From Ctenosaura bakeri (Eukaryota; Chordata; Lepidosauria; Squamata; Iguanidae): a stretch of DNA of 64,000 nt. A program made the translations under genes and the position numbers. Of the stretch, positions 13,187-60,413 are shown piece by piece (the first letter of the stretch is position 1; each line of letters opens with the position of its first letter). The stretch lies in assembly GCA_948474755.1 (NCBI GenBank), contig CAOLHI010001155.1, positions 363,712 to 427,711 on the forward strand, read 5' to 3'. Under the pieces are notes generated by a model. The model was not told the DNA's origin and did not search any database. It saw nothing but the letters and a program-made list of their open reading frames with translations.

Positions 13187-15068
13187 TGTTACCCCAAAAC
13201 GTGGGTGACTCAGAGGTCCACCTGCAATGCCACATGACAATGGGGAATTAATTAGCTCAGTTAGGTAGTCTGTTGGGGGAGTAATCTAACAAGATCTTGT
13301 TACCCTGATTTCTGGGGGTCCCGTGAGGGACACCTAAGTGTGCTCCAAATTACAAGGTTGGAAATTAGTCAAAAGAGCACAAGCTAGCAATACAAGAGGC
13401 AGGGCAATGGAGCGAGATCTTTTACCCAATGTCTACGGGGTCAGGCTGAGTCAAGGAGCAAACAGAAGTAAAATAATAATAGTTGTCTTTATTAAAATAC
13501 AGCCAAACAAGTGTATGCAACACACTCACACAGAGAACTATAGAAATAAAGGTTGGAGTTGGATAGAGGGATTTTTAGAGGAGGTTTGGTATGGGAAATA
13601 CTACACCTGTCCCAAAGCCCGGATAGTGTGAAGAAGAATTTCGTGGAAATGGAGTTTCTCAGCATGTGGAGCTGAGGAGAAGGCTCGCCAAACGAAGCGG
13701 CAACAAGGCGGGATGGAGCGATCCGACGAAGCGCTCAAAGTCAGGGGTTCTTATAGGGGAAAATGTGGCTGTAGGCTAGTCCGTAGTTGGGGACAACAAT
13801 GAGTTTTGGGCTGGAGACAAAGCCTCCGAAAGGTCAGTATTTTACATGATTGAGTTAGGACCGAATTGTCAATAGAATAGCCAGTATGCAAACGTGGAAT
13901 GCTTGACAGATGAGTATTTGGCTAGTCAAGCTGCCTGCTCGGGGCAGGGAGTTCTTTGTAAGTAGCATGCCTACATAATGTGGTACTTGCCTTGAGGTCC
14001 CCTGAAGCGGCAGGTCGGCTGTTTCTGGCCTGTCTGTATTTGTGTGGAATATTACAGCGCTTAGCGGCCGTGCCTGTATGCGAGCTTGTCCGGGTGCCTC
14101 GCAAGCACGTGGAGGACAGAGGGGTATAGTAAGCCAAATTATTGATATCAAAATGATATCTAATATCCCACAAATCCGGGCTAGAAACTACAATGACAAT
14201 CTTCCACCAATGTTTATGGCATCCTCACAGGAAAGAACCAGCCAGAGATTCCAAAATAAAGTAAAATGTGTCTTACTGAAAAAGGTTCAGTCACACACAC
14301 AAAGATCCAAGCACTCACACACTCACACAAGAGCCATCTAAATGATAAAGGGAAGAAAGTTGTTGATAGCAGAGTTTTAGGGAATAGGCAATAATTACTG
14401 ATCCGGACAGCAGTGAAGAAAGCAGCAATGTGTCTTGAACTTCAGCCTAAGGACAATAATTTTTTGGAAATCAGAATGACAGCATGACATTCAGCAAGCA
14501 AGATACTGCATCTGACTGCTGAAAACAAAGGGTTTTTATAGCCAAAATCTGCCTGAAGGTTAAGAATGTGCATGGCTTTCTGGCCGAGCAAACAGTGGAG
14601 GTTACAACACAGACACTGGAGTCTGGACAGAGTTAATGGTCTTAGTATTTGGTGACAAAGAATTAATGGCTGTCATAATAGCTCTGTAATAATGGACAGG
14701 TAAAGGAATAATGAACAGAAACATCCAGCTGCAAGGAAGAAGGGCTGAAACAATCAATGTTTTGGTGAGTGATTCCCATCACTATTGTGTGGTAGCAGAG
14801 ACGTTACAGCTTCAGCTTAAGCCTATTATCTCTGGAGTTACCTGGTTATCCTTACAATGACCTTGGCTATGCCTAGAAGTGATCTCTGATTTACTTTGCA
14901 GCACATGTATTCAGTCAGTATTTTTCTTCTGCTCAGCTTGCCCTTACAGTCATATCAGGGCTCATTTTATGACAATGCCAATTAATGTATTTTGCCCATT
15001 AAATCATATTTTGCCACCTGAACGATATCAGATCTGGGGGGGGGCTGTGGGCTGGAAACACTGATGTA
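13187..15068 (-). mobile_element. Old LTR of the same superfamily, split by a younger solo LTR
   Basis: The sequence outside the solo LTR at 13,298-14,198 has the same layout as that LTR. It starts TGTTACCCC with a gaggtccacc-like block, then has a tract at 14,262-14,335 matching the region after the poly(A) signal in position (AAAATGTGTCTTACTG, CACTCACACAAGAG). A minus-strand TATA-like ggctataaaaaccc lies near 14,530-14,545. The distance from the poly(A)-equivalent position to TATA is about 268 bp, against about 265 bp in the nested LTR. The right end is fuzzy (gggctggaaacactgatgta near 15,050-15,068). No target duplication was identified. Confidence 0.55.
13298..14198 (-). mobile_element. 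Solo LTR (copy 1) of the ten-copy retroviral family
   Basis: The 901-bp LTR begins (plus strand) TGTTACCCTGATTTCTGGGG and ends ...AGAAACTACAATGACA, with perfect 4-bp flanks ATCT at 13,294-13,297 and 14,199-14,202. On the minus strand it has a TATA-like box (ctataag, 13,750-13,756), a poly(A) signal near 13,490, and two GATATC hexamers near the U3 start (about 14,144-14,160). There is no internal viral sequence, so it is a recombination remnant. It is very similar to the copy at 31,989-32,885. Confidence 0.9.
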
Positions 15069-16880
15069 GCTTTTCACATGTGATAACATTGTTATTCAAT
15101 GTTACTGTCACTCCCAATCCCAAAACACTGGAGGATAGGTAGCATAGTGTTGGAAACAACACTTCTGGAAAAATTCATATATTAGGAAAAGTGGTGGGCG
15201 TTGGATGTGTATTTGTTTTTAAGTCTATATAAATAGAAGACTTTCTGCATGGCATGTAAAATGATTGTGAGAGAAATTTTAAATACCGCAGTAATTTATT
15301 CTACTTAAGTAGAAGTGAATCTTTTACGAAGTGAGATGACATCAGCCTCTAAAGGACAAGAAGATTAAAATACTAGCTTTGACCTCATTTATTTATGTGT
15401 TAGATGATTAACAAAATACGATGTCATATTTTTGCACATATCCTGAAATAGAATCACTAACCACTTGCTAACCACACAGAGCTTTTAATAAAAAAGTGGT
15501 TGCTTAATGCTTCCCCACCAGAAATGTTACGATTAGGTTTGCTATTAGATTGCAACCAGAATAGTCTACAAAACAGGAAGAAAGCCTTGCTTTGCTCTCT
15601 ACCTCTTTTTCTTGTTTAAGTTGATGTGATAATTCATTACAGATTTTCTTTCTTTGACAGAGTGCTTACCGCAGAAATGGAATGACGTTTCTTGCTTGCT
15701 AATATGGATGTGGCTACACCAACAGGAAAGACAGTGTTATATTAAGGTGATTTTTTCCCTCCTTTTCCCTCCATTGAGGGGGGAAAACATTTTTAGAAAG
15801 CCTCCAGTATTTGCATATGGACTTGTGAGTAGGCTGGTTTGTTGTGACTATCAGCCAGGTCTCTTTCCAGCATCTTCAGTTGTTACTTTTGTTTTTTACA
15901 TGGAATATATAGCAAATTAATGGCAGGCAGTTGGAGATGATGTGTAGGTGGATGAGAACGCAGTTGTCCTTTTTTTTTTTTTTTACGTTTCAAGTTGATT
16001 TTCTTATACAGTTTATCAACCTATCTAAACTTTAATGTCCTTTTTTTACATTTTAATTCATCCCCATATAACAAGACAATAGAAGCCGTGATTCTAAATT
16101 CTTTTAAATGGTTTTAATTCATCTGATTTTAAATGGGAAATGATTTAATATAATTGTACTCATTTAAAATTACTATTATTTTTTATTTTATATTGATTTA
16201 AATTTAAATTCATTGATTTTGTATTACACCCTGATAGCTTAAAATATAGAGCAGGTATAAATATTTTAATAAATAAATAAAATGGTGTTATTTATTTTCT
16301 CTAAATGAAAGGGCAAATTACTTTGCTTGCTTTTCTTGATTGGCAAGATAATTGTAGTTCGGGTGTTCATTGGTACATTCTTGTTAAATTAGAATGATAG
16401 ATTCTTTTGTTACTCAGTATAATGTGAAAAGTGATGTACACTTGAATTGCTGCGACTCAGGAAACTTCTGACATAAAGTTTCAGACTTGATGTGTTCTAA
16501 TTCAACAACTGACATCTTTTATCCCTATCTTTCATCTGCAATGTGGTCTCCTTTATTGGATTTCTGTAAGGCAGGGATTTGTGCAGTAGTGTACTATGAG
16601 AAATTAATTAGGTAAATAAACCAAGCAAGCCCAGAGTAATCATCCAGAGTGGGTAAAGGTAAGTAATCCTCATGTATAACCAATTTCTGTACAGAGTGCA
16701 GCAGCTTTACTCACTCTGACAGATAGTGGTTTGTTTTCCCAGTTCAGGATCTGTGCAAGGCATCTTCAACCAGTGTCAGCTGCAGCAAGGACCCTGTAGC
16801 ACTCACCTTGAGAACTCCTAATTTGAAGTACAGCTGCAGATGACAACTCTTTGAGCACAGTTTTCCAACCAAGTATGGAT
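15069..16880. other. Anonymous AT-rich DNA
   Basis: No gene recognised. A T15 run lies near 15,970-15,984 and 16,000-16,300 is very AT-rich. A splice-like AG...GT pair around 15,660-15,747 was examined and not accepted as an exon. Confidence 0.45.
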
Positions 16881-16884
16881 CCCG

Positions 16885-18700: not shown

Positions 18701-18703
18701 CAT

Positions 18704-19627
18704 TGTTATCCTGATTTCTGGGGGTCCCGGGAGGGACACCTAAGTGCGCTCCAAATATTAATAAGTTGGGGGAATTAGCAAGGAGCACAAGCTAGCAATA
18801 CGAGAGGCAGGGTAATGTAGTGAGATCTTTAACCCTATGTTTACAGGGTCGGGCCGCGACAAGAACTAGGCAAGTTGTTCAATTAAAAGATTTTATTAAA
18901 CTCTCCTTGATAAAGCAAACAACGACACACGCACTCACGCACTCATCCAAGAACTATAGAAGCAGAAAGTGAGGGAAATTGATAGGGGTTTTCAGCGGGT
19001 TTTCTGGGGTGATACTCCACCTGATCCTGCAGTCTGGGATAGGAGAAATAGAGTTCGATTCTGGGGATCGTAGTAGCTCAGCACATGGAGGCTGAGGGGA
19101 GGCTTGCTGAACAGAGCAGCAGCAGTTCGGGATGCAAGACGCGAGCATTCTGACAAGGAGCTCAAACTTGAGGTTTTTATAGAGGCTAGCCCTCTCCCGA
19201 GGAGAACAATAAGGTTTTGAGTGGAGACAAAGCCTCCGAAAGGTCAAAATCAGAATTGATGAGATTTAGCCAGCATTGCCAATTGTTAGAACAGTATGCA
19301 GATGAGGAGCGCTTAGTGTTTGTATAGAGCAAGCAGTTTGGGGCTGAGAGCCCTTGCATTAGCTTAATGGTCGGCTGTGTCTGGAGGGCACTACTGGCTG
19401 TGTGGCAAATGGTTGTTTACTGGCCTAGACCTAGATCAAGGAGAGTTTAATAAAATAGACCTGGCCTAGTGCATAATTAAGACTATGCGGCCATGCCTGC
19501 CTAAACTGGCTTTTTGTGACCCTTTCAGACATGTGGAGTTCATTTTATGGAGTGGCACGTGGAAATATTAACCATAACCAATATGAAATTGTAGACCTCG
19601 GGCTTGGGCCAGATAACCACAGTAACA
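18704..19627 (-). mobile_element. Solo LTR (copy 2) of the ten-copy family, diverged
   Basis: The 924-bp LTR begins TGTTATCCTGATTTCTGGGG and ends ...GATAACCACAGTAACA. Flanks are ACAT at 18,700-18,703 and 19,628-19,631. A TATA-like ctataaaa (minus) lies at about 19,175-19,182 and a poly(A) signal (minus AATAAA) near 18,893. The U3 end is more diverged than in the other copies and the paired GATATC is not visible. It is inserted in the minus-strand CR1. Confidence 0.85.
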
Positions 19628-19830: not shown

Positions 19831-20204
19831 GGACTAACTCTAAGAAGTGAAGACAATCGGATCAGTTCTTTCTTTGTTCTGTCTAGGAATCCTGTTCTCT
19901 AATATGTTGAAGTCACAAGATAAAGCTGCAGTTCACTGACCTTCTCTTCCAGCTTACAAGTGTAGATATTGAGGTTATCTATCAAGAAGATGAACATTGC
20001 ATGCACATTGCTACAGTGCCACAAGGCATGCCCCACTGGCCCTCAGAGACTGAGCTCCAAAACCTAAGGCAGCAGTTATATAGAGCTAGTGATTGCTAGC
20101 TCCTCCTCAAGCAAGTCAATTACTCAGCAGAAGCCCCACCTCCTTAGACCATGTGTTCAGGGCACATGGCCACCACACAAGCCTTAAACACAAACACAGT
20201 CTAA

Positions 20205-20406
20205 GGGCCTCTCTACACTACACTGTTATTGTACTATTATTCCACTTTCAACATCCTGTGGTATTCCGGGGTTTGTAGTTCACTGAAGCCAAAGAGCTCT
20301 CTGGCTGAGAATTCTAAATGCCCCTCCTTAAACTACAAACCCCAGGATTCCATAGTGTGTTGAAAGTGGAATAATAGCACTATAACAGTGCAGTATGAAA
20401 AGGCCC
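20205..20406. mobile_element. Palindromic MITE, copy 1 (PIF/Harbinger-like)
   Basis: The 202-bp fold-back element has terminal inverted arms of about 80 bp (GGGCCTCTCTACAC... against the reverse complement of ...AAAAGGCCC, sharing CTATTATTCCACTTTCAACA). It is flanked by TAA at 20,202-20,204 and 20,407-20,409. A 3-bp TWA duplication is typical of PIF/Harbinger elements, so that class is inferred. Related copies lie at 41.8, 43.4, 44.6 and 60.6 kb. Confidence 0.75.
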
Positions 20407-20409
20407 TAA

Positions 20410-27235: not shown

Positions 27236-27289
27236 ATGGTGATCGCATGACTCATGTATAGTTGATAGGAGAACCTCCTCTACCTGTGA

Positions 27290-27490
27290 AACTTGTATGT
27301 AATTACTGTGTTTGCTGCTGTATAAGTCTCACTTCCCCCCCAAAAAAATACAGTTTGAAAATGGGATGTGTCTTATACATGGGTGTGTCTTATATGCTGG
27401 CAAATAGTATTTACCAGTGTATAAATGGGGTGTGTCTTATACACTGGTGCGTCTTATGCCTGAGTGCATCTTACATGCCAGTAAATGCAG
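27290..27490. repeat. GTGTCTTATAC-rich DNA-transposon-like repeat
   Basis: Five imperfect copies of a GTGTCTTATAC-type unit (gtgtcttatacatgg, gtgtcttatatgctgg, gtgtcttatacactgg, gcgtcttatgcctg, gcatcttacatgcc) follow a C7A7 tract. This resembles the ends of hAT-type elements known in vertebrates; the class is inference. It abuts the truncated chromovirus. Confidence 0.4.
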
Positions 27491-27509
27491 TAATGCTATG
27501 TAAAATGCG

Positions 27510-28628: not shown

Positions 28629-29522
28629 TGTTATTGCGGTTCAGGCTTACCTGGAGATAGCATATGATATCATTTTGATATCAAACCATTCCGCTTTCCT
28701 CTGCCACCCCCGCTCCTCATGTTTGTGAGGCCTCCGGACAAGCACATAAACAGGCGCGGCCGATAATTGCTGGACATTCCATTCTCCACCCAAGCAGGCC
28801 AGACAGAGGCGATTCATCTCTTCAGGGATCTCTCCAGCAAACACCTCGTTGCTTATGCGCGATACTAACAAAGGCTCCCAGCCCCGAGCAGGTAACCTCA
28901 CAAAGCTGTACTAAGCACTCCGCATTTGCATACTGGCTACACTATTGTTAATTCGACCCTGATTCAATCATGCTAAACTCTGATCTTTCCAAAGCTTTGT
29001 CCCACTCTTAAATTGCATTGATCTCACCGAGTAAGGTATGGCCTGCAGTCACAATTCACCCTATAAAACCCCCCAATTCCGAGACCTTCCTCAGACTGCT
29101 TGGATCGCTCTGGACTTCCATCCTGCCTTGCTGCCGCTTTGTTTGGCGAGCCGTCCCCTCAGTCCCACGTACTGAGACTCCATACCAATGAACTCAATCT
29201 TCAAACCTCTCTAGGACTACGAGACAGGTGTCGTATCACCCATCTCCCCCTAAAAATCCCTGTTTCCGATTCTTTAGTTAGCTGTGTGACTGTGGTGTCT
29301 TTGATATTTGTCTGTATTTAATAAAACGTCATTTTTATTACTTTAAACCGTCTGACTGCTTGACTGACCTGACCCCGTAGACGCTGGGTTGCTAGATCCT
29401 GCTAAGTTACCCTGCCTCTCGCTAGCTTTAGTGAGTGCTCTAGCTAATTTTCCCCAAGGCTGTGTTGTTGTTGTTTGGTTATTTGGGCACCCCTCCCAGG
29501 ACCCCCAGAGAACAGGGTAACA
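28629..29522 (+). mobile_element. Solo LTR (copy 3) in the chromovirus
   Basis: The 894-bp LTR runs from TGTTATTGCGG to ...GAGAACAGGGTAACA, with CTCT at 28,625-28,628 and 29,523-29,526. Two GATATC hexamers lie near 28,665-28,685, a TATA box TATAAAA at 29,062-29,068 and AATAAA at 29,320-29,325. Removing it joins the integrase zinc-finger coding of the host element. Confidence 0.92.
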
Positions 29523-29714: not shown

Positions 29715-30563
29715 TGTTACTGAGAAAATTGGGGGGTCCCGTGAGGGGCGCCCAGCCTTGCCAATTGAAAATACCAAATGTGGGGAAATTAGAACTCAGA
29801 GCACTGTTTTAGCTAGCGAGAGGCAGGGTAACGTAGCAAGATCTTTCACCCTATGTCTACGGCTTCAGGTCAGAGAGTAAGCCAACAGGGTTTAAATAAA
29901 CAATAGAAACTTTATTAAACATAAATAGCAAAATAAACAACACACACGCTAACTAATTTAAAGAGTGAGGAAATAGACACAGAGGGAGAACGGGTGACAC
30001 GACACCTGGTCGCGTTGTCCTGAAGAAACTGGAGCAGAAGAGAGGGGCTCAGCGTGGTTGCTGAGGGGAACTCTTGAACAAACCGGCAGCAGGACAGGAT
30101 GGATGTTCAAGGGGAACCAATGAGGTCTCAAAGTGAGGACCTTATACAGGGTGAAACACGCCTGTCGGCTATGGCAAACGAGATAGGAACAAAAGAAGTT
30201 TTGGCGCTAGACAAAGGATTTGGTGAAGTCATCGTTATCATGATGGGTTTTGCATTGCAAGACAATGGAGTGGCCGGCAAGTTGATGGCCCTCTGAAAAG
30301 GTATGCTTTGGCGGGAAGCCGCGCTGCTATTGTAGAGTGTGGGTATGGAAGTTCCCTAAAGCTACGTGAGGCTTGGGAATTGCTGGCTTGAATGGAGAAT
30401 GGAATGTAAGCTATTAATCAGCCGTAGCCAGTACGTGCCTGTACGGAAAACAACCCGAACACGTGCAGCGGGGCGACAGAGAGGGGTCTAGCAAAGGCCG
30501 AATTAAATGATATCAAAGCAATATCTGGGGGCCCTCATCTGTGGTATCATAGCTGGCATAACA
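29715..30563 (-). mobile_element. Solo LTR (copy 4) in the chromovirus, opposite strand
   Basis: The 849-bp LTR begins (plus) TGTTACTGAGAAAATTGGGG and ends ...TAGCTGGCATAACA, flanked by CTTG at 29,711-29,714 and 30,564-30,567. On the minus strand it has a TATA-like box near 30,141-30,147, a poly(A) signal near 29,915, and a GATATC/CAATATC pair near the U3 end. Confidence 0.9.
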
Positions 30564-31615: not shown

Positions 31616-33043
31616 AAGGGAAGAGATTGCTTTAGGGGGCCAGAATGGCAGATTGCCAAGCTTCCCTGTCTTGGAAAATAGTACCCTGTTGAATGTGTAT
31701 TACTTACTAACTGTTAACATGTATGTAATCACTGCAAAAAGCGGCTCCTATGTATCCAAGCTTAAGCACTGTTCTCTTGATTCATGCTAGGGAAGAGCAG
31801 GAACAGAAGGAGAAAACAAAAGTTAAGACTGGTGGTTCTGGGATGTTATGAGAGCAGAGTAGTGTGGAGATACAGCTAGAGAAAATATGCAGGAGGATCA
31901 CCTTGGTTAAGGAGGTGTGGGTTTGTGGGAGGCACCAGCCTGGGAAGAAAAAAGAGAGGGGGAATAGACACATGAAGGGATTTATAGCTGTTACCCTGAT
32001 TTCTGGGGGTCCCGTGAGGGACACCTAAGTGCGCTTCAAATTACAAAGTTGGGAATTAGTCAAAAGAGCACAAGCTAGCAATACAAGAGGCAGGGCAACG
32101 GAGAGAGATCTTTTACCCAATGTCTACGGGGTCAGGCCAAGTCAACGAGCAAACAGAAGTAAAATAATAATAGTTGTCTTTATTAAAATACAGCCAAACA
32201 AGTGTATGCAACACACTCACACAGAGAACTATAGAAATAAAGGTTGGAGTTGGATAGAGGGGTTTTTAGAGGAGGTTTTGATATGGGAAATACTACACTT
32301 GTCCTGAAGCCCGGATAGTGTGAAGAAGAAGTTCGTGGAAATGGAGTTTCCCAGCACGTGGAGCTGAGGGGAAGGCTCGCCAAAGAAGCAACAGCAAGGC
32401 AGGATGGAAGCCAGGAGCAATCTGAGGAAGCGCTCAAAGTCAGGGGTTCTTATAGGGGAAAATGTGGCCATAGGCTAGTCCATTCTTGGGGACAACAATG
32501 AGTTTTGGGCTGGAGACAAAGCCTCTGAAAGGTCAGTATTTTACATGATTGAGTTAAGACCAAATTGTCAATAGAGTAGCCAGTGTGCAAACACGGAGTG
32601 CTTGACAGTTGAGTATTCGGTTAGTCAAGCTGCCTGCTCGGCATACATAATATGGTACTTGCATACATAATATGGTACTTGCCTTGAGGTCTCCTGAAAT
32701 GGCGGGTCGGCTATTTCTGGCCTGCCTATATTTGGAATATTACAGCAATTAGCGGCTGTGCCTCTATGTGAGCTTGTCCGGGGGGCTCACAAGCACGTGG
32801 GGGACAGAGGGGTATAGTAGGCCAAATTCTTGATATCAAATGATATCTAATATCCCACAAGTCCGGGCTAGAAACTGCAGTAAAATAGCTTTGACCAATA
32901 AATGCTGTATGCACACAAATCTGTACTGATAGCCTTTGAAAGATGTATGCTGTATGTACCCCTGAATGTCAGCAACTTCTGTGGTGTGCTGTGTTGCTCT
33001 TGCTTATCCATGAAAATAAAGGAATGTACAACCTGGTAACACT
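31616..33043 (+). mobile_element. Probable chromovirus 3' noncoding end or LTR, split by a solo LTR
   Basis: After the pol stop come AAAAGGGAAGAGA (31,614-31,626) and GGGGGCCAGAATGGC, candidates for a polypurine tract. Non-coding DNA then runs to 31,988 and resumes at 32,886, reaching a possible LTR end cctggtaaca at 33,034-33,043. No 5' LTR was found for comparison, so the limits are guesses. Confidence 0.35.
31989..32885 (-). mobile_element. Solo LTR (copy 5), mutated terminus
   Basis: The 897-bp LTR starts (plus) TGTTACCCTGATTTCTGGGG, nearly identical to copy 1, and ends ...AGAAACTGCAGTAAAA where relatives have CAGTAACA. Flanks TAGC at 31,985-31,988 and 32,886-32,889 fix the boundary despite the terminal change. 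A TATA-like box (minus) lies at about 32,449-32,455. Confidence 0.9.
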
Positions 33044-40097: not shown

Positions 40098-40099
40098 GA

Positions 40100-41961: not shown

Positions 41962-42241
41962 TTAGTCTCTAATACTAGATATGAACTACATGTCACCAAA
42001 GCAAAAGTAATGATAAAAAAACACACCATGACAGCTCACGTAAACCATCGAAATTCCCATGAGATATCTTTTTAAACATTTAAGAGATGAACTTTAGTGC
42101 ACAATTTTAAGAAATTATTTCCCAGCATTTATTGTGAGACAAAGAAGAATCTCACTTGCTTAATACACAATTAAATCTAAATTCCAAGTTATGGAAACTG
42201 TCAAAAACAATAGCATAGTCTCCAAAACTTGCCTCTCTACC

Positions 42242-43105
42242 TGTTATCACGGTTATGATATGTCAGGTGAGAGCACTAGATATCCTTTTGATATCAAATA
42301 ATTTGGCCTTTGCTTGACCTTTTTCTGCCACCCTACTCCACGTGTTTGCAGAGGTCCCACAGACAAGCATGTACGGGTGCAGCCGTTAATGGTTCTACAT
42401 TCCAAGACCCCATTCAGGCAAGCAACTTAAGCCTCTCCGTTGCTTTAGGGAAAAACCTCCCTGCAAACTGGCTCTGCTCGGCTCATATCTACACAAAGCC
42501 AAGAGCCAAACCATTTCTTTATGTTGGGCCATCAACGTACTGGCCACGCTGTTGTCGTTAAGTGCTAAGCTAATCATGCAAAACTTGACCTTTTCCGAAT
42601 CCTTCGTCCAGCTCCAAATTTCCTTTGTTCTCACCGAGCATAGCAGAGCCTGTAGGCACACTCCACCCTATATAAGGTCTCCACTTTTGGGACATCTTCG
42701 GACTACCTTGGACTTCCATCCCGCCTTGCTGCCGGTTGTCTAAGGAAACTCCCCTCAGCAAGTTCCATTGAACTTTCTCTCCCGGAACCCTGTCTTTCTC
42801 TCCAGGGTTATGAGACCAGGTGTCATATTACCCTTCCCGAAAAGCTCTCCGTTTCTATTTCTCAGTTAGTTAGTGTATGTCTTGTCTTTCGTGTTCCTTG
42901 CCTTTAATAAAATATTGTTTGTCACTTTAAAACCTTGTCTAGCTGCTTTCTGACCTGACGCTGTATACATTGGGCTAAAGATCCTTGCTAAAGTTACCCT
43001 GCCTCTCGTTTAGCTGAGAGAGTGCTCAAGTTAAATTCCCCCAACTCATGATTTTATTTGGTTATTTGGGTGCCCCTCCCGGGACCCCCAACATACAGGG
43101 TAACA
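42242..43105 (+). mobile_element. Solo LTR (copy 6) of the ten-copy family
   Basis: The 864-bp LTR runs from TGTTATCACGGTTATG to ...ACATACAGGGTAACA, flanked by TACC at 42,238-42,241 and 43,106-43,109. It has GATATC twice near 42,279-42,297, TATATAAG at 42,669-42,676 and AATAAA at 42,906-42,911. Confidence 0.92.
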
Positions 43106-48016: not shown

Positions 48017-48893
48017 TGTTACTGCGGTCCAGGCTTACCTGAAGATAGCATTTGATATCGTTTTGATATCAAACCATTCGGCTTTCCCCTGCCACCCCAC
48101 TCCACGTGTTTGCGAGGCCTCTGGACTAGCATGTAAACAGGCTCGGCCGATAATTGCTGGACATTCCATTCTCCACCCAGGCAGGCCAGACAGAGCCGGC
48201 TCGTCGCTTCAGGGACCTCTCTGGCAAACACCTCCTTGCTTATGCACGATACTAACAGAGGCTCCCCTGCCCCGAGCAGGCAGCCTCATAAAGCTGTACT
48301 AAGCGCTCACATTTGCATACTGGCTACACTATTGTTAATTTGACCCTAAGCCAATCATGCTAAACTCTGACCTTTCCAAGGCTTTGTCCCGCTCCTAAAT
48401 CACATTGTTCTCACCGAGTAAGGTATGGCCTGCAGTCACAATTCACCCTATAAAACCCCCCAATTCCGAGACCCTCCTCGGATCGCTCCCAAGTTCCAGA
48501 CCGCTTTGCTGCCGCTTTGTTCGGCAAGCTCCCCTCAGCCAACCGCGCTGAGCTTCTTCCCTGCACCCCAACGTCGCTCTCAAACTACAGGACAACAAGA
48601 CAGCTGTTGTATCACCCACTTCCCTCTAAAAATCCCCATTTCCAATTCTCCAGTTAGCTGTGTGACTGTGGTGTCTTTAATATTTGTCTGTATTTAATAA
48701 AACATCAATTTTGCTACTTTAAAACCGTCTGGCTGCTTGACTGACCTGACCTCGTAGACGCTGGGTTGCAAGATCCTGCTAAGTTACCCTGCCTCTCGCT
48801 AGCTTTAGTGAGTGCTCCAGCTAATTTTCCCCAAAGTGTTGTTGTTTGGTTATTTGGGCACCCCTCCCGGGACCCCCAGAGATCAGGGTAACA
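48017..48893 (+). mobile_element. Solo LTR (copy 7) of the ten-copy family
   Basis: The 877-bp LTR runs from TGTTACTGCGGTCCAGG to ...AGAGATCAGGGTAACA, with GCCA at 48,013-48,016 and 48,894-48,897. It has GATATC twice near 48,054-48,070, TATAAAA at 48,449-48,455 and AATAAA at 48,696-48,701. It is close to copy 3 in sequence. Confidence 0.92.
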
Positions 48894-51251: not shown

Positions 51252-52137
51252 TGTTACTGTAGTTTCTAGCCCGGACTTGTGGGATATTAGATATCACTTA
51301 GATATCAATAATTTGGCCTTCTTTACCCATTCCTCTCCACGTGCTGCAAGGTCCCCTGAACAAGCTCCCAGACAGGCACAGCCACTAATTGCTGAATTAT
51401 TCCAAACAATACAGGCTGGCCAGAAATAGCCGTCCTGCCACTTCAGGAGACCTCAAGGCAAGTACCACATTATGTACGCACACTACTTACAAAGAACTCC
51501 CTGCCCCAAGCAGGCAGCTGTTGAGCACTCTGCATTTGCATACTGTCTACTCCTTTGTCAATTCGGACTTAACTCAATCATGATTAATTCTGACCTTTCG
51601 GAGGCTTTGTCTCCAGCACGAAACTCATTGTTTTCCCCAAGTACGGACTAGCCTATGGCGACATTTCCCCCTATATAAACCCCTGGCTTTGAGAGCTTCT
51701 TCGGATCGCTCCCGACTTCCATCCCACTTTGTTGCTGCTTTGCTTGTTGAGTCTTCCCCTCAGTACCACGTACTGAGACTCCATACCTCCCAACTTCTGC
51801 TGCAGACTACCCGGGCTTCAGGACAGGTGTAGTATTACCCAAACCAACAACTCCTCTTAAAAATCCCTCTATCCCACTCCAACCTTTATTTCTTTAGTTC
51901 TTTGTGTGAGTGTGTTGCATACACTGTTTGATTGTATTTTAATAAAAACCACAATTATTATTTCACTTCTGTTTGCTCCTTGACTTGGGCTGACCCCATA
52001 CACACTGGGTAAAAGATCTCGCTCCATTGGCCCGCCTCTTGTATTGCTAGCTTGTGCTCTTGGCTAATTTCCCCAACTTACATAATTGAGAGCACATTTA
52101 GGTGTCCCTCCTGGGACCCCCCAGAAACAGGGTAACA
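51252..52137 (+). repeat. 5' LTR of the unclassified provirus
   Basis: 886 bp, TGTTACTGTAGTTTCTAG...AGAAACAGGGTAACA. It has GATATC at 51,290-51,295 and 51,301-51,306, TATATAA at 51,673-51,679 and AATAAA at 51,941-51,946. Confidence 0.93.
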
Positions 52138-53159
52138 GAGCGGTGGGGCAACGTGGGCAACCCCTGTACCCCTAATTTGAGTAGGAGTCGCAAACCTTCT
52201 CAAATCAGGCTGGTATAGACTTAGGGAAGGGCCAGTCAAGTCGTTAGAGCTTCTGTTAGGCAGGAACACATGTGTGTGTGTGGAATCTGTGTGCTTGAAC
52301 TCCAGGAACAATTCTATCTGGGCTGGAAATCTCCTCCCCTTTCCTGCTTGGTTTGTGTATGTCAGCCGCCCTGGCGTGGTCACTGCTGGCCCTTGGGCAG
52401 TGAATCATTGTCCGATAGCAAGGGGTGTGCACAAGCTGTCCTGGGAATCACATCCCTAACTTGGGGCCTATCGTGGGCTGGGATCCAAGCGCTAGGGCAT
52501 TAGGAACAGTCCACACACATCCAACACGGTAGTGGCAAGGCAATAGCACTTAGGGAAGAAATCCCCCCCCCGAGTAGAATACAGGTGCATCCCGTTCCTT
52601 AGTGTGAAGCTTGGGTGCATCCCATTTGGTGTAGTTTTGAAAGCGCGGGTGCATCCCTGCTGTTTAAATTTCGGGTGCGTCCCGATCGCTAGCGAACTAG
52701 GTGCGGGTGGTGATTCCTGACCTAACATAGGGTTTCATAGGGTTTAGCCTAAGGTGTTGGAAGATTCCCCTCACCCAAAAAACTGTTAGGGACAGTTCAG
52801 TCTTGGTTCCTTGCCCCTTTTTCCCTGCTGCTTGGCCAGGTGGCACTGTAAGTTCCAGTGGGTTCATTTCCTCCCTTCAGTGGCAGGCAGATTACTCCTG
52901 AAGGTTTCCCCTGGAGTCTAGGTGACTCTCCCTGTCCCTGAACCGTTTCCTCATCCCTTTGTCCCTAAGCTGTTGAGGTGGAAGGCCGGGCTTAGGTGTA
53001 CTAAAGTGACCCTTGTCAGGCAGGCTGGAGTTAGGTTCCATTCCCTCTTCCCTCGCGTAGTTCTGTAGTGTTCATGTCCCTAGAATCCCCCAGGGGTCTT
53101 GGTGATCTTACCCTTCCCTCCAGATCCTGATCCTTTTGCATTATAGTTAATAGTTGAGA
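52138..53159 (+). other. Long leader with four GGTGCATCCC repeats
   Basis: About 1 kb between LTR and gag without a coding frame. GGTGCATCCC occurs at 52,584, 52,614 and 52,648, and GGTGCGTCCC at 52,674, spaced 30, 34 and 26 bp. It could be part of the packaging or dimerisation region; this is inference. Confidence 0.65.
52144..52161 (+). promoter_or_regulatory. Candidate primer-binding site, possibly tRNA-Lys1,2 type
   Basis: TGGGGCAACGTGGGCAAC starts six bases after the LTR. It shares TGG and CAACGTGGG with the lysine-1,2 primer site if a 2-base gap is allowed. The assignment is tentative. Confidence 0.4.
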
Positions 53160-54987
53160 ATGGCTGAGTGTAGTAAGGTTCCCGTGAAAGACCTCATGCT
53201 AGAAAAGGAGGTCAAGGGCAAGCTTGGAAAGTGGGTCCTCGGTAAGAGGAAATGTCCCGGGAAGGAGTCTAGCTTCCAGATGGCAGACCCCTTTGCCACA
53301 CTAAGGGAGGCGTACATTCAGGCGCGCCAGTCAAAGAACCCTTTCGGCCCGTCAAAGGATGCTTTGGCTGCCTGGGGACTTTGGCTGACCACCAGAGATG
53401 CCTCAAAAGCCCTGGTTGAGACCAGAGATAGGCTAGGTGACCTGGAAAAGGAGAATGCCTGGCTTCATGCTGAGATGGAGGCCCTGCCCCCGGACAATGT
53501 AACGTTTGCGTCTGTCGCGCAGGCCACTTCACAGAAACTGAGTGCTGCAACCTTACAGGGTCAGACATGGGAGGAGAAGGCTCATGCCTTAGAGGCTGAG
53601 CTTGCTCATGCCCAGTCTGCAGCCAAGTTTATGGTGGGCCAAGTGAAGGAGCAGCATGAGGCTATCAGTCATGAGGCCTGCTATAAACAAATTCAGGCGC
53701 TGGAGAGTCACCCTCAAGGCATTGATCTTTGTGGTGTGCCCTGAACTTCTCCCCTCATTCGCACACGAGGAGCCGCTGCCCGAGGACGCTTTGGCCACCC
53801 TTCCCCACAACCTGGACTGGAGTGACCACAGGGTCCCAGTCCATCCTGTAGAGACCTGCTCAATGACGAAGAGAATTGCCCTTTCCGAAGAGGGAGGCAC
53901 AGACAGGGCTGAGGTTTACGAGACCCAGGAGACTGAGGCTAGGGTCCCCTGGAGAGCCACCGAGGCCAAGGCCATAGCCGATCAGCTTGGCCCCCTAAAT
54001 AAACAGACAAGGATTATGTGGTTGAACGCAGTGATACATTCCCACCCCACTGCCAACAGCCAAGATTTGACCCAGCTGGCCAGGCTTTGCATGTCACCTT
54101 CAGAACTCCCCACACTTGAATCAGCCATGGAAGCTTGAGGCTTAGTGAGACTAGAGGCCCACAGCTGGATGAGGGAGGTGATTGGGATTTTACGGCCCGG
54201 GCAGAGCGCGAGCATTCTGTATGTCATGGAGCAACAGGGTCCTCGAGAGAACCCTGAAGCTTATGTGGCATGGAAGCAGCTTCTGGCCGTGTTAGCTGAG
54301 AAGGTCCCCTTAGCTCCAGGAGGGTACAACTTCAATCATGTAGAATTCAAGACTCTCCTTTACGGGGGTCTGAATCATGAAACGAAGATGGCCCTGGGAC
54401 TAGTGGACCCTGCTATGACAAATTGGGAGGAATTTGGGAACAACCTCCGGTGGGTCGCAGACCTGCTGCATGAGACTGGTTCTCTAAAACCTTCTCCCAA
54501 ACAGCACAGATGTGATGCCGGGAATTGGGAGCCCATTCAGGAGGTGACATACTCCAACTATGGACCCCATTCCCAGCACAGAAAAACAGCCCCGAATTCC
54601 GTTCCTAAGAGGAATTGGAATTCGCGTCCTCCCCCTAGACAGGACAACAGGCAGTGGCAGGCTAGGGATTCCCGTAGTCAGCCCGGCAAGGCAGGGAATT
54701 CCTCTCAGCCACCCTCTGCCCCAAAACAGACCTCGGATTCGAACTCTCCCAGGGAGACGTCTGGTGGGTACAACCCTACAGCCCAGACGTACTCCTCTGA
54801 CAGAGTGAGAATCTGGGGCATGCTCAGGAAGTTCGGACTGGACATGAGCTAGTTCAAGAAACGGCCAACTTCCGAACTGATAGAAGCTCTGGAGAAGCAG
54901 CTTCAGGCGGGAGGTAAACAGCTGGTCAGTGCTGTGACCAATGGCCCTCCTCCGGCTGGATACTATCCTAGCCTGGATCTGCATCAA
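53160..54987 (+). pseudogene. gag: gag relic of the unclassified provirus
   Basis: Structural polyprotein. The ATG at 53,160 (MAECSKVPV) opens a frame to 53,744. It has basic stretches in the first 35 residues, AxxW-type helices and a coiled-coil-like segment around residues 80-110 (LGDLEKENAWLHAEMEAL). Coding then moves to another frame (within 53,656-54,138), meets a TGA at 54,136, and continues in the same frame at 54,145-54,852. This capsid part contains a major-homology-region-like motif (QGPRENPEAYVAW, 54,235-54,273), fitting QG-x2-E-x4-aromatic. The end is rich in Arg, Pro, Asn, Gln and Ser (NSRPPPRQDNRQW) with no Cys-His knuckle. After a TAG at 54,850-54,852 the same frame stays open for 45 more codons (FKKRPTSELIEALEKQ). 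No cysteine-based nucleocapsid is visible anywhere downstream. Confidence 0.75.
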
Positions 54988-55420
54988 TAGGGATGCCCCC
55001 GGTCCAGGAAGCTTCCCCGTAATGTTGTGGCTAAATTGAAGACAGACAAATGAGGAAGGTTCTGGGTGAAGGTAGGCGTTGGGACTGAGAGGGACAAGAC
55101 TCCTGCCACCCCTCCTGCAGACTCCAGAGCAGCGCTAAAAGTGCTGATCTCTAACCTGAGAAGACAGGGTGAGCCCACCCCAGACGTTATCCGGTTGGCT
55201 GGGTATGGCGTGGGGGACCCAATCCAACCACTTCAGAAAACCCAAGCGCCCCAGGCACACCAGAGCCAGGCAGATTGCACCTCCCCCTGACTTAGCCCCG
55301 AGTGCGAATCCAACCACCTCGGAGACCATAGTGCTTTCAGACCACTGAGAAGGATCGCACCAGGCTAAGGTTCAGGAGGGAGCCCCCACCAAATTTGACA
55401 AAATACAGGACATTGCCAGC
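54988..55420 (+). other. Unassigned gag-pol junction
   Basis: Broken frames such as RAALKVLISNLRRQGEP and RLAGYGVGDPIQPLQ are visible. No protease active-site triad (D-[ST]-G) was found. This may be decayed protease or spacer. Confidence 0.35.
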
Positions 55421-55950
55421 ATGGGTGAGAGCCAGGAAAGGGAGAACACAGAGCAAGGGGAAGCCAGCCCCAAGCTTCCAAAGCTCCCCATTGTCCCTGC
55501 TCTGAGCCCCCTGTTAGAAAATGGAAGTTTCTCCTGGAATTTCCTTGAATCCTTGGCAGAGAGAGTCCACCCTCTCCATGCCTTATTTCAAGGGAATTTC
55601 CTGTGGGACTACGGATTCGAGCAGCGAGAGGCTCCTGCCCAGCCAGAGCACCAGCTAGCACAGACACTCACACTGGCACATCCTGACTTGACACCACATA
55701 CTCCCCTTAACTGCAGTCCATCAGTCCCAAATACTACACAGAGGTGGATGTGGCTACTGCCTTCCCCTCCACAGAGCTATACTGGTGCCAGCTCACATTC
55801 ATATTCAGTGGCATCCAATATCTTTTTACTCTAGTGATCTTAAGAGGGGCCAGGACAGTTCCATGGCTCTGTCTCGATCACCATCCTGCCAAGAGAAAAG
55901 ACATTACTCCAGGAGGCATTCAGGTCAGAGACCAGTTTCCACTTTAATTT
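55421..55950 (+). pseudogene. pol: pol relic, RT pieces in unexpected order
   Basis: Around 55,510-55,730 the frame gives an RT thumb/connection-like segment (LAERVHPLHALFQGNFLWDYGFEQREA, read in pieces, then LTLAHPDL). Immediately after, at about 55,743-55,850 in another frame, is EVDVATAFPSTELYW...FIFSGIQYLFT, which resembles RT palm motif A (D-x-x-x-A-F) and the region leading to motif B. In a normal RT the palm comes before the connection, so the pieces are out of order or come from different events. No YxDD box, RNase H or integrase was recognised. Gag-to-env spacing leaves under 1.5 kb for pol, so most of it is deleted. Confidence 0.5.
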
Positions 55951-56458
55951 GGGCAAGAGGATCTCAAGCAATGAGTGGGCACTGCCGCTCTTGCAAGTAA
56001 TTTCGGAGACCCACAATCAAACACATTCGAAGGACTGGAAGGGAAAGCCCCCAGACTAGACGACCCCGTCCTTTGTGCAGCAGCCAAAGAGCAAGGCGAC
56101 TGCCTTACTTCCCTTCATGGGCTGGCAGCCACTTTGAAGAGACACACGCAAGCAAAGTTTCCCCTTTTTGTGTATATAGTTTGTTTTAGTGATAGTTGTA
56201 GTTGTAGATTGTGAGCCTCTTCTGCTTTTGCAACCAAAGCAATATAATTTGCCGCTCAGGTGATTCAGACCAGCCTCATGGGATTAGTACACCCAGAGAT
56301 CTTGAGCCTGCTAAGAGAGCACTACCCGGAATCTTTGGAACACCCTGCCACTTTGGCACAGAAATGACATGCCACTTGGGAGAGCTTAACTCTCAAGGTG
56401 GAAGTCGTACACGAGAGGATTCTGGATCCGGTAATTTTACATCCATTATCCCATCTAG
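55951..56458 (+). other. Unassigned, between pol relic and env frame
   Basis: A 79-codon open frame (55,975-56,214) reads GTAALASNFGDPQSN... with no known domain. It may be end of pol or start of env out of frame. Confidence 0.35.
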
Positions 56459-57208
56459 GACTTCCTCAATGCCACCTTGCTACCCCGACAAATGTACCAT
56501 TGGTCCAACAGTACACACTCATTTGATTTATCTGGTTGTTTATTCCACCACCATTGGATACAGTGCTTTCGCAACATTGACAGTTTTAGTTATGGTAACA
56601 TCTCTGATTACATTGTGGTACCAGTCAATTATACAGTCATGGCCCACATTAACAGTGAGGGCTTTTGTTTAAGAACCCCATGTTCAAATGTGATTGTACT
56701 GCCTAGTGGTGCGACTGTAAGACTCAACCGCACCGCCGGCAACCCTTGCTTTTTTCCCCAGCACATCCAGGATTGTTTTGGTAACGACTTCTATCTTCGG
56801 TGGGAGATACGAGATTATATTTTGGAAAATGGAGGTGTGCCCACAGAGTCCGAACTAGTTGGATTCCATCTAGAAGACGAGATCCCCTTGTCTTTATGGC
56901 TAAGGAATCTCACCCACGTAGCACAGAAAGTTATGGAGGTTTCGCACACCCTCCACCAGATTGCCTTGACAGTTAATCATTCAGCCAAGGTAATCGTTGA
57001 ATCATCAGAAGAATTGGAAACCTCTTCACAACAATCCTGGTGGGACACCTTCACTTGGTCGTCCACGGGGCAAGCGATCGCCCACTTTGCCTTGCACCCT
57101 TTAATTATTTTAGTCGTGTTCCAGGTCATACTTGCCATATGCTTAATTGGCCCTGCACTGTGGGTCAAGAAACAAATTTTCCAGCTGCAAGCTGGCTGGT
57201 TTTATTGA
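56459..57208 (+). pseudogene. env: Envelope-like gene, C-terminal part open
   Basis: The frame opens after a TAG at 56,456 and runs about 249 codons to the stop at 57,206-57,208; no ATG start is evident, so the N-terminal part lies in another frame or is lost. It has seven N-glycosylation sequons (NAT, NST, NIS, NYT, NRT, NLT, NHS) and a few cysteines (CLRTPCSNV, NPCFFP, QDCFG). A helical stretch with hydrophobic heptads follows (VAQKVMEVSHTLHQIALTV), then WW, then one C-terminal membrane anchor (PLIILVVFQVILAICLIG) and a short tail with KK. This is the layout of a retroviral transmembrane subunit. The CX6CC motif of gamma-type envelopes is absent and no furin-type site is visible. Assignment as env rests on position, sequons and anchor. 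Confidence 0.65.
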
Positions 57209-57453
57209 GAGCTCTGAGGCTCATAATGTGTAAATACTTCATTGTTAGTGTGTAGTGTTTTGATTTTGATGTCCCAATTGGTTTGAAAAGCCTATCCGAA
57301 GGCGACCAATCTTTAGGTCTGCCTCAGAGTCCACCTTTTCTGATGTAAGGAAGTTGCTTACTCGGAGTCTGCATCGAGCCATCTGGACCGTACTTGCAGC
57401 CAACCCCAAGCCCTCAGGCTACATCATCAGGCTTGGAGCAAGGCTCTGGTCCT
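57209..57453 (+). other. 3' untranslated region after env
   Basis: Non-coding between the env stop and the G-rich tract. Confidence 0.6.
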
Positions 57454-57467
57454 GAGCGAGGGGGGGG
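57454..57467 (+). promoter_or_regulatory. Polypurine-like tract before the internal LTR
   Basis: GAGCGAGGGGGGGG directly abuts TGTTACTTCAG of the LTR at 57,468, as a plus-strand primer would. Confidence 0.6.
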
Positions 57468-58380
57468 TGTTACTTCAGCCGAGGCCTATCCGGTGATAGC
57501 GCTAGATATCCGTTTTTATATCAAAACCATTCGGCCTTCTTCTGCCACCCCACTCCACGTGTTTGCGAGGCCTCCGGACAAGCATGTTAACAGGCGTGGC
57601 CGGTAATTGTTGGACATTCCATTCTCCACCTAGGCAGGCAGAACAACGCCACTCCGTTGCTTCAGGGGTCTCCCTGCAAAAACCTTTTTGCTTAAGCGCG
57701 ACACTAACAAAGGTGCCCAGCTCTGAGCCAACAGTCTTACAAAGCCAAGCTAAGCATCTTGCATTTGCATACTGGCTACACTATTGTTGATTCTGCGCTA
57801 AGCCGATCATGTTAAACTTGACCTTTTCCAAAGCTTTATCGGGCTCCAAACTCGCATTATTCTCACCGAGTAAGGCATGGCCTGCAGTCACAATTCACCC
57901 TATATAAACCCCCTGATTCCGAGAGCACCTCAGATCACTCTAACTGCCAGCCCCCCCCCCAACTGCTTGGATCGCTCCCGAGTTCCAGACCGCCTTACTG
58001 CAACTTTGTCTGGCAAGCTCCCCTCAGCCACCACACTGAGTTTCTTCCCTACCATCTTCAGCTTCTTCAGGACTATGAGAAAAAGTGTCGTATCACCCAT
58101 TTCCCCCGAAAATCCTTATTTCTAATTCTTCCATTAGCTGTGTGGTTGTGGTGTCTTTACTTTTTGTTTGTCTTTTAATAAAAACATCATTTTTTTGCTA
58201 TTTTAAAACCTGTCTGACTGCTTGACTGACCTGACCCCGTAGACGCTGGGTTGCAAGATCCTGCTAAGTTACCCTGCCTCTCGCTAGCTTTAGTGAGTGC
58301 TCCAGCTAATTTCCCCAGCTTTGTGTTTGTGTTTCGTTATTTGGGCATCCCTCCCGGGACCCCCAGAGAACAGGGTAACA
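57468..58380 (+). mobile_element. Internal third LTR of the ten-copy family
   Basis: 913 bp, TGTTACTTCAGCCGAGG...AGAGAACAGGGTAACA; it resembles copies 3 and 7 more than the outer LTRs. GGGG lies on both sides (57,464-57,467 and 58,381-58,384), but the left one is part of a G-tract. It has GATATC at 57,505-57,510, TATATAA at 57,901-57,907 and AATAAA near 58,177. It is either a solo LTR nested in the provirus or the true 3' LTR of the gag-env unit. Confidence 0.85.
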
Positions 58381-58384
58381 GGGG

Positions 58385-59505
58385 GACCTCAGCGAAACAA
58401 CTGCTGTATAGGACCTCATCCTGTTCGGGGATGAGTTTGACTTTTTGTCTGCTAACTGGAGGCCAACCTTGTTCTGGAACTACTTTGGATATCTGAATCC
58501 GACCTCATTCTGGGATGAGTCTGGCTAACCGTGCCTAAGGACTGATGGATGGATGCTGGCTCCGAATCAGCAACCTTATTACCTGAATAGGCTCGTGGTG
58601 GACCCTGAATCAGCAGCTTCACTGCTGTCTTAGCCTTCCTATAGCCAATACAGCTCTATTCTTGGGAGCTATTTAAACCCTCACTCCCTCGAAGATTTTT
58701 CAGTCACAGCGAAACCAAATTTCAGGACCTTCCATCAGTCTCTGAGCCAGTAATTTGCATTTACTTTATACATTGGCTACTAACCTTGTTAGTTTTCTGC
58801 AAAATAGCTACAGGTCGACAGCTCCGGAGAACCAGGATGACCCCCGTTCCTGACCATCACCCCGGGTATTGTGGGGAGGGTGAAGAAGAAATATCGCCAC
58901 TCCAACCGGGAGCTAGTCCAAAGGAGATACCCGATCCCTCTGCTGCAGCTGTAGGACCATGGTGGGGTGGTGGTGATCCAGGACCCTCTGACAGACAAAA
59001 AGACTGTTTTTGCCAAAAGACTCTGATTTAAAAGACTTTTGCTTTTGCAAAATGGACCATTCCTCCGGCAAAGACCTGCAAGATGCAAGCCGTGGATAGT
59101 TGGCTTTCACTTGTTAGCTAGTATGCAAGATTGGATACAATGTAATCACTACTTTGCTTTGCTCACTTCTGCAGTGCCTCATTGGAAGGCATGCTTTTGC
59201 TTCCAAGTTCAATTGTTTTTTGCATTCTGCCATTTACCGTAGTTGCTCATTTACTGACAGTTCTCTACTGATGGGACAGTTTGCTATTGATCATTGCTTA
59301 ATTGACATTTGTGTGAATGTGTTTAGGTTTAGGTTTTAGATAGGAATGTTTTTGTAAGATAGAAACCCTTCATGTTTCCCAAAAAAATCCCTTTGCCTAT
59401 GGAGTAATACTATCTCTGAGCCTGTGGACCCCTATTTGGCACTAAAAATTCCTTTGAAATGTTTAATTGGAAAATGTTCAATATTGTCCCAAATCGCCCA
59501 TTTTC
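58385..59505 (+). other. Unexplained 1.1-kb block inside the provirus
   Basis: It lies between the internal LTR and the terminal LTR. Features: duplicated phrases gacctcatcctgttcggg (about 58,411) and gacctcattctgggatgag (about 58,501), and an 81-codon open frame (58,786-59,031) rich in Pro, Gly and Glu with no known domain. It could be 3' viral sequence, captured host DNA, or the tail of another provirus. Confidence 0.4.
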
Positions 59506-59515
59506 AGGGGGGGGG
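59506..59515 (+). promoter_or_regulatory. Polypurine-like tract before the 3' LTR
   Basis: AGGGGGGGGG, followed by T and then the LTR start. Confidence 0.6.
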
Positions 59516-59516
59516 T

Positions 59517-60413
59517 TGTTACTGTAGTTTCTAGCCCAGACTTGTGGGATATTAGATATCACTTAGATATCAATAATTTGGCCTTTTTAACCTATTCCTC
59601 TCCACGTGCTGCAAGGTCCCCCAGACAAGCTCGCAGACAGGCACGGCCACTAATTGCTGTAATATTCCAAACAATACAGGCTGGCCAGAAATAGCTGTCC
59701 TGCCGCTTCAGGAGACCTCAAAGGCAAGTACTCTATTATGTATGCACACTACTTACAAATTAGAAGAATCCTCATCTGTCGAGCACTCTGTGTTTGCATA
59801 CTGTCTACTCCTTTGTCAATTCGGACTTAACTCAAATGATGATAAATTCTGACCTTTTGGAGGCTTTGTCTCCAGCCTGAAACTCATTGTTGTCCCCAAG
59901 TACAGACTAGCCTTCGGCCACATTTCCCCCTATATAAACCCCTGACTTCTCCAGAGCTGTCAACCTGTAGCTTCTTTGGATCGCTCCCGACTTCCATCCC
60001 GCCTTGCTGCCGCTTTGCTTGGCGAGCCTTCCCCTCAGTCCCACGTACTGAGACTCCATACCTCCCAACTTCTGCTGCAGACTACCCGGGCTTCAGGACA
60101 GGTGTAGTATTACCCAAACCAACAACTCCTCTTAAAAATCCCTCTATCCCACTCCAACCTTTATTTCTTTAGTTCTTTGTGTGAGTGTGTTGCATACACT
60201 GTTTGATTGTATTTTAATAAAAACCACAATTATTATTTCACTTCTGTTTGCTCCTTGACTTGGGCTGATCCCATAGATGCTGGGTAAAAGATCTTGCTCC
60301 GTTGCCCTGCCTCTTGTATTGCTAGCTTGTGCTCTTGGCTAATTTCCCCAACTTACATAATTGAGAGCACATTTAGGTGTCCCTCCCAGGACCCCCCAGA
60401 AAACAGGATAACA
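59517..60413 (+). repeat. 3' LTR of the unclassified provirus
   Basis: 897 bp, TGTTACTGTAGTTTCTAG...AAACAGGATAACA, with TATATAA at 59,931-59,937 and AATAAA near 60,215. It is followed by GCCA at 60,414-60,417. Confidence 0.93.

What the first reader, a model, noticed from the sequence alone, without database searches (positions are those of the whole stretch)
13298..60413. One LTR family inserted ten times in 47 kb, with 4-bp target duplications still visible
Ten related LTRs (849-924 bp) lie on both strands. Seven are solo LTRs with perfect 4-bp flanks (ATCT, ACAT, CTCT, CTTG, TAGC, TACC, GCCA) and two bound a provirus flanked by GCCA; a third LTR inside it has an ambiguous GGGG flank. Such density and intact duplications point to a recently expanded retroviral lineage and frequent LTR-LTR recombination.
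Basis: seen in the sequence. Interest (0 to 1): 0.8.

Follow-up and report, generated by a model that had tools for sequence, protein, structure and literature searches.

The report
Old, crowded retroviral LTR graveyard
Ten long terminal repeats of an old, very abundant retrovirus-derived lineage crowd into 47 kb of an animal genome; their insertion scars are real, but the copies look ancient rather than recent, and the one provirus among them belongs to a form that seems to have lost most of its polymerase gene before it spread.

Summary
In detail: ten LTRs (849-924 bp) lie at the stated places, seven solo LTRs have exact 4-bp flanks, and 51252-60413 is a provirus flanked by GCCA. The unclear tenth LTR (57468, GGGG) is best read as a nested insertion: in 18 of 29 related loci the site is empty, though one (L056) carries another LTR at the same G run. 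"One family" is loose: four subfamilies. "Recently expanded" is not supported: the provirus's LTRs differ by K2P 0.071-0.081, and 27 fetched A copies are never closer than 0.068 to each other. Intact duplications are usual at that age (20 of 25 A, 18 of 20 B copies). A 24-base LTR end has 4,969 exact hits, an 18-base internal end 52, so solo LTRs dominate; the window is about 30-fold enriched. New here: the provirus lacks most of pol, and 5 of 6 relatives examined share that structure, while other relatives show RT, RNase H or integrase: a non-autonomous ERV subfamily, presumably moved in trans. Known kind, new member.

The parts
13298..14198 (-). solo LTR, subfamily A, TSD ATCT
18704..19627 (-). 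solo LTR, subfamily D (clear similarity to A only over about 150 bp at one end), TSD ACAT
28629..29522 (+). solo LTR, subfamily B, TSD CTCT, inside a Gypsy-like element
29715..30563 (-). solo LTR, subfamily C, TSD CTTG, inside the same Gypsy-like element
31989..32885 (-). solo LTR, subfamily A, TSD TAGC
42242..43105 (+). solo LTR, subfamily C, TSD TACC
48017..48893 (+). solo LTR, subfamily B, TSD GCCA
51252..52137 (+). 5' LTR of the provirus, subfamily A; TATATAA near 51673, AATAAA near 51941
52144..52158 (+). primer-binding-site-like stretch; shared in form by four other copies; tRNA not identified
53154..54849 (+). gag remnant, broken into pieces; no zinc knuckle match, no Pfam match above a curated cut-off
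55421..55693 (+). pol remnant: distant match (29% over 91 aa, E 5e-9) to the RT-RNase H linking part of relative L066
55862..56032 (+). pol remnant: distant match (30% over 57 aa, E 8e-6) to the integrase 3' part of relative L065; most of pol is missing
56214..57205 (+). env remnant without its 5' part
57468..58380 (+). LTR, subfamily B, nested in the provirus within a G run; the site is empty in 18 of 29 related loci and holds a C-type LTR in one (L056)
58381..59506 (+). 3' internal region between env and the 3' LTR
59507..59515 (+). polypurine tract (G run) before the 3' LTR
59517..60413 (+). 3' LTR of the provirus, subfamily A; outer flank GCCA

Best explanation
This is an old, dense patch of independent insertions of a very abundant endogenous retrovirus lineage (of the order of ten thousand LTRs in this 1.9-Gb genome, estimated). 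Each element was integrated with a 4-bp target duplication (shown); most then lost their bodies by LTR-LTR recombination within one element (inferred from solo LTRs inside one duplication). The surviving provirus belongs to a non-autonomous subfamily that had lost most of pol and the start of env before it spread (shared structure shown in five relatives), so it must have been copied and integrated by proteins of autonomous relatives (inferred). A later B element inserted into the provirus and became a solo LTR in turn (supported by empty sites).
For: Exact 4-bp flanks at eight of eight testable insertions in the window, 20 of 25 informative A copies and 18 of 20 B copies elsewhere, the other seven with one mismatch. 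26 of 27 fetched A copies without adjoining body match. 18 of 29 related loci with the 57468 site empty. Star-like tree, nearest K2P at least 0.068 among the 27 fetched A copies. 4,969 LTR-end and 52 internal-end hits, controls 0. Same gag-to-env joint of about 1.36 kb in 5 of 6 relatives fetched for it (the sixth, L064, does not match the element there), and no Pfam RT, RNase H or integrase in the stop-free pieces submitted from the window and four relatives; other relatives show RT (L066, L067), RNase H (L066) and integrase (L065, L066).
Against: Trans-mobilisation is inferred only. The relatives were found by a 3' region like the window's, so they are no random sample, and at least 5 of the 29 (L032, L036, L046, L047, L055) have the longer env, so the two forms are mixed. 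L056 has a C-type LTR at the very same G run: two LTRs of different subfamilies at one site is more than even insertion would suggest, and I have no test of why. The genome search scores 40 of about 9,000 candidates and missed the window's own 3' LTR, so a rare young copy could have been missed. Duplications are a little more intact (1.8% change, 0.7-3.6%) than LTR branches suggest. Internal copy number rests on one 18-base pattern.
Confidence: 0.85

Rival explanations
1. A recently expanded retroviral lineage.
For: High copy number and intact 4-bp duplications.
Against: K2P 0.071-0.081 between the provirus's own LTRs; no match above 91% among 78 other scored places; star-like tree with terminal branches 0.034-0.075. 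With the crocodilian rate used in PMC4299795 (3.9e-10 per site per year, passage read) this is 91-104 My, with a mammal-like 2.2e-9 (recalled) still 16-18 My.
Confidence: 0.04
2. The cluster arose by local duplication of LTR-bearing segments, or by an assembly fault, and not by separate insertions.
For: Ten LTRs in 47 kb is far above the genome average.
Against: Separate insertion sites, each with its own flanks and duplication, both strands, four subfamilies; the self-comparison shows no other long repeats than the LTRs, the ~330-bp repeats of a second ERV, palindromic repeats of up to about 210 bp and a 43-bp inverted pair (E up to 1e-10).
Confidence: 0.03
3. The pol deletion is private to the window's provirus, which otherwise belongs to an autonomous family.
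For: Old proviruses often carry private deletions (general knowledge); relatives with pol domains exist.
Against: Five of six relatives fetched upstream of env show the same gag-mid-env order without full pol; the middle piece is 80-86% identical.
Confidence: 0.05
4. Compatible with the main reading: insertion preference or poor clearance (gene-poor or rarely recombining chromatin), not chance, makes the cluster.
For: Other contigs are dense too: 16 of the first 100 listed LTR-end places lie on one contig (C21), and four 3'-region matches on one 0.59-Mb contig (C3111). The LTRs sit amid a Gypsy-like element and a second ERV.
Against: No map of chromatin, genes or recombination here; the window was picked because of its density.
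Confidence: 0.5

Closest known systems
ERV1 (class I) endogenous retroviruses
   Same: 4-bp duplications are given as typical of ERV1 (PMC4299795, section 8 with Table 1, read); the RT piece of relative L066 is closest in the PDB to chains that I recall as gammaretroviral (4hkq and others, 8e-29).
   Different: No zinc knuckle, Gag_p30 or TLV_coat match in the pieces tested, whereas the second ERV in this window shows all three; integrase closest to foamy virus, then Ty3.
ERV4 of crocodilians and turtles (PMC4299795, abstract and section 8 read)
   Same: No zinc finger found in gag, env present.
   Different: ERV4 typically makes 5-bp duplications; here 4 bp.
Lokiretroviruses (PMC9040795, passages read)
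   Same: A relative has two RNase H-like domains (RT_RNaseH and RNase_H) and an env without recognised match; the paper gives reptiles among the hosts.
   Different: Similarity of env to Mononegavirales fusion proteins could not be shown here; no pol tree was made; two RNase H-like domains are also usual in canonical retroviruses.
Internally deleted, trans-mobilised LTR elements (MaLR with ERVL as helper, recalled)
   Same: Very many solo LTRs and proviruses lacking pol, with pol-bearing relatives in the same genome.
   Different: Here gag and env remnants are kept; the helper is not proven.

Membership tests
Endogenous retrovirus (LTR provirus) | two direct LTRs with TG..CA ends bounding an internal region, inside a target duplication | tested here: met
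   51252-60413, GCCA on both sides
Endogenous retrovirus (LTR provirus) | polypurine tract before the 3' LTR | tested here: met
   G run in the window and in most of the 19 relatives printed; L045 shows a GT run and L055 only four G
Endogenous retrovirus (LTR provirus) | tRNA primer binding site after the 5' LTR | tested here: inconclusive
   a shared stretch in five copies; resembles the tRNA-Lys1,2 complement with a gap (recalled), not exact
Endogenous retrovirus (LTR provirus) | pol with RT, RNase H and integrase | tested here: not met
   not found in pieces of the window's provirus or four close relatives; found in L066 (all three), L067 (RT) and L065 (integrase)
Solo LTR by recombination | single LTR, no adjoining body, one target duplication | tested here: met
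   seven in the window; 26 of 27 fetched A copies without adjoining body match, 20 of 25 informative ones with exact duplication
ERV1 | 4-bp target duplication | tested here: met
ERV1 | zinc finger in gag | tested here: not met
   no zf-CCHC match in gag pieces of the window and of L059 and L062; broken frames limit this
ERV4 | 5-bp target duplication | tested here: not met
   no 5-bp fit in the seven solo LTRs, in the 15 A copies for which it was printed or in 20 B copies
Lokiretrovirus | env related to Mononegavirales fusion glycoproteins | tested here: inconclusive
   no PDB match of two env profiles up to E 10; models too poor, mean pLDDT 43 and 30
Lokiretrovirus | position in an RT tree outside canonical retroviruses | not tested
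   no tree with reference sequences was built
Recently active family | near-identical copies or LTR pairs | tested here: not met
   the genome search is not exhaustive

The most novel reading that the evidence does not exclude
An unusual retroviral lineage (no gag zinc knuckle found, env of no recognised family, integrase nearest foamy virus and Ty3, 4-bp duplications), possibly loki-like or undescribed, gave rise to a pol-less gag-env form that was copied in trans and, with its relatives, left about ten thousand LTRs in this genome; LTRs of two subfamilies entered the same G run of its proviruses, so that run may be a preferred entry site.
Probability: 0.25. Interest if true: 0.5.

Novelty: new member of a known kind. 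Interest (0 to 1): 0.3.

Why it matters
It corrects a tempting inference: intact target duplications and many copies do not mean recent activity, because 4+4 bases usually survive several percent of divergence. It also shows, within one genome, a pol-less retrovirus form beside relatives that keep pol domains, a good case for asking how non-autonomous retroviruses are helped in trans and why LTRs pile up in some regions.

Tried and rejected
Recent expansion: rejected. GGGG copy as the 3' LTR of a second provirus because a G run precedes it: rejected, since 18 of 29 related loci run straight through that site. Foamy virus or ERV4 membership: no Gag or env family match above cut-off (only weak coiled-coil type matches, best Rab11-FIP3 at E 0.0055-0.007) and the duplication length departs from ERV4's. 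Searches of 5.8 billion predicted proteins with one gag and one env piece found nothing at E 0.01. PDB: the gag piece only a neuroglobin at 1.3, the env piece a designed coiled coil at 0.005 and a ribosomal protein at 1.2, two env profiles nothing. Two AlphaFold models of env pieces were of no use, so no fold search was run. Rfam (gathering scores) and tRNA scans of the window: nothing. The planned searches for empty copies of the Gypsy-like element that holds LTRs 28629 and 29715, and for D copies, did not complete.

Papers: PMC4299795 abstract, sections 6 and 8 and passages; PMC9040795, PMC6001957, PMC4054807 and PMC12440569 passages only; all others seen as search listings.
Full report
What is there. 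The strand with a TATA motif near 51673 and AATAAA near 51941 was taken as sense; on it 28629, 42242, 48017, 51252, 57468 and 59517 point forward and 13298, 18704, 29715 and 31989 backward. Seven LTRs have their own exact 4-bp duplication and none of them fits 5 or 6 bp; the outer sides of 51252-60413 both read GCCA. Eight exact matches of four bases have a chance of 5e-20.

One family or several. Pairwise K2P distances among the ten give A (13298, 31989, 51252, 59517; 0.08-0.22), B (28629, 48017, 57468; 0.15-0.25), C (42242, 29715; 0.55) and D (18704; 0.59 or more to the other nine). Ten pairs were tested, nine between subfamilies and one within C; all score above their 60 shuffles (47-319 against at most 32), so they are one lineage in a broad sense. 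In a tree of the ten LTRs with 27 A copies from the genome, B plus C is set apart from A with support 100, and the 27 copies form a star; two window pairs stand apart within A, 13298/31989 and 51252/59517. D falls inside A there, but with support 9 and a very long branch.

The unclear copy. LTR 57468 stands in a G run. Of 29 other loci fetched with the 3' internal region (of 39 others scored), 18 have the sequence left and right of that LTR directly adjoining, overlapping by 3-5 bases at the G run. Nine others show no LTR there but lack one side or match only further in; L050 has 305 bases of other sequence between; and L056 carries an LTR 81-83% identical to the C-type LTR 42242 at the same G run, with five G on either side. 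So the LTR is best read as a nested insertion later than the provirus, but the same run was entered twice by different subfamilies, which I cannot explain. Another relative, L063, has a nested LTR in its middle piece with an exact ACGG duplication.

Hosts of two other LTRs. 28629 and 29715 cut a Gypsy-like element whose remains are RT (27262-27801), RNase H-like (27783-28058), integrase zinc domain (29590-29712) and chromodomain (31436-31531), in order on one strand; each Pfam match is below its curated cut-off (E 0.0025 to 6e-5).

Age. The provirus's LTRs differ by K2P 0.081 (ten-sequence alignment) or 0.071 (37-sequence alignment). Among the 27 fetched A copies the nearest neighbour is never closer than 0.068 and terminal branches are 0.034-0.075. 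The best other genome matches are 89% for A and 91% for B, 40 scored (the query itself included) of 9,015 and 9,753 first-look candidates. That search is not complete: it missed the window's own 3' LTR. With the crocodilian rate of PMC4299795 (passage) the provirus would be 91-104 My old; with 2.2e-9 (recalled) 16-18 My. Passages of PMC4054807 report very slow substitution in turtles; that the repeats here look sauropsid is my recollection and rests on no call.

Intact duplications. Of 27 fetched A copies, L024 is a 5' LTR and L019's start is unclear; of the other 25, 20 are exact and five have one mismatch (mismatches counted by eye). Of 20 B copies 18 are exact and two have one mismatch. With the window's eight, 46 of 53 are exact, which fits 1.8% change per copy (0.7-3.6%), somewhat less than the LTR branches suggest. 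Perfect flanks are therefore expected and say little about youth.

Abundance and solo LTRs. A 24-base LTR-end pattern has 4,969 exact hits, its reversed control none. It is exact in 5 of the 10 window LTRs and 11 of 27 A copies, so of the order of 10,000 LTRs are likely. An 18-base internal end has 52 hits, control none, and is exact in 10 of 29 fetched bodies, so about 150 A-type bodies; the first look of the longer 3' region gave 500 candidates, which may be a cap. That makes roughly 30 A LTRs per body, with the A share taken as 39 of the first 100 listed hits, counted by eye on a two-letter difference. Of 27 fetched A copies, 26 show no match to the window's body pieces beside them; one place not fetched (C3111:344781) adjoins a 3'-region match, so it is a proviral LTR.

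Density. Expected exact-pattern hits per 64 kb: 0.17; here five; about 0.03 such windows expected in the genome if insertions were even. The window was chosen for this density. Other contigs are dense too: C21 holds 16 of the first 100 hits and C3111 four of the 3'-region matches. So clustering is not peculiar to this window.

The provirus. Between gag remains and env remains lie only about 1.36 kb (54850-56207). Six relatives of the 29 were fetched upstream of env: five show the same order and the same middle piece at 80-86% identity, one of them (L063) with a further LTR nested in it and only part of gag, and the sixth stretch (L064) does not match the element. The stop-free pieces submitted from the window and from four relatives give no RT, RNase H or integrase by Pfam. 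At least five of the 29 (L032, L036, L046, L047, L055) have a longer env. Upstream of three of these, L066 shows RT, RNase H and integrase domains, L067 RT, and L065 integrase; not every piece was submitted, and their frames are broken too. The middle piece keeps two distant bits of pol, a linker part and an integrase 3' part (28-43% over 42-105 aa). The pol-less form is thus older than these copies: a non-autonomous subfamily. That relatives supplied the enzymes in trans is inference.

Class. The RT piece of L066 is nearest to chains I recall as gammaretroviral (8e-29), then Ty3 (7e-20) and a foamy-type Pr125Pol (3e-18); one chain without a virus name, 4ol8, which I recall as Ty3, scores 1e-20. 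The integrase piece of L065 is nearest PFV integrase (2e-23), then Ty3 (2e-20). Gag pieces show no zinc knuckle; env has no Pfam match and no PDB match better than a designed coiled coil. The 4-bp duplication fits ERV1 and not ERV4. I leave the class open. I found no paper in the library that describes this family by the searches made, which compare words only; it may well be in Repbase or Dfam.

Verdict. Observation confirmed, recency not supported, recombination supported, kind known.

Noticed in passing
window 33593-40486, minus strand: A second, unrelated ERV: ~331-bp LTR-like direct repeats 94% alike, an AAAAGGGGGGAA tract before the 3' LTR, and Gag_MA, Gag_p30, zf-CCHC, RNase_H, rve (below cut-off) and TLV_coat matches; the space between zinc knuckle and RNase H is too short for a full RT.
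   Followed up: partly
L056 about 338-1311; window 57468-58380: Two LTRs of different subfamilies (C and B) sit at the same internal G run of two proviruses; a preferred site or another mechanism is open.
   Followed up: partly
window 52144-52158; L059, L061, L062, L024: The primer-site stretch is shared by five copies yet fits no tRNA I know exactly; the primer is open.
   Followed up: partly
window 20200-20411, 41757-41965, 60574-60660: Palindromic repeats of up to about 210 bp (the last only 87 bp), 75-86% alike, perhaps a short DNA-transposon-like element.
   Followed up: no
window 27262-31640, plus strand: Chromodomain Gypsy-like element with two of the LTRs inserted in its pol.
   Followed up: partly
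G000 contig C3111 (109081, 343719, 431492, 454548): Four proviral 3'-region matches on one 0.59-Mb contig; bodies seem clustered.
   Followed up: no
window 5639-5938 plus, 12264-12554 minus: Reading frames that look like CR1 LINE pieces of sauropsid type (recalled; no Pfam match).
   Followed up: no
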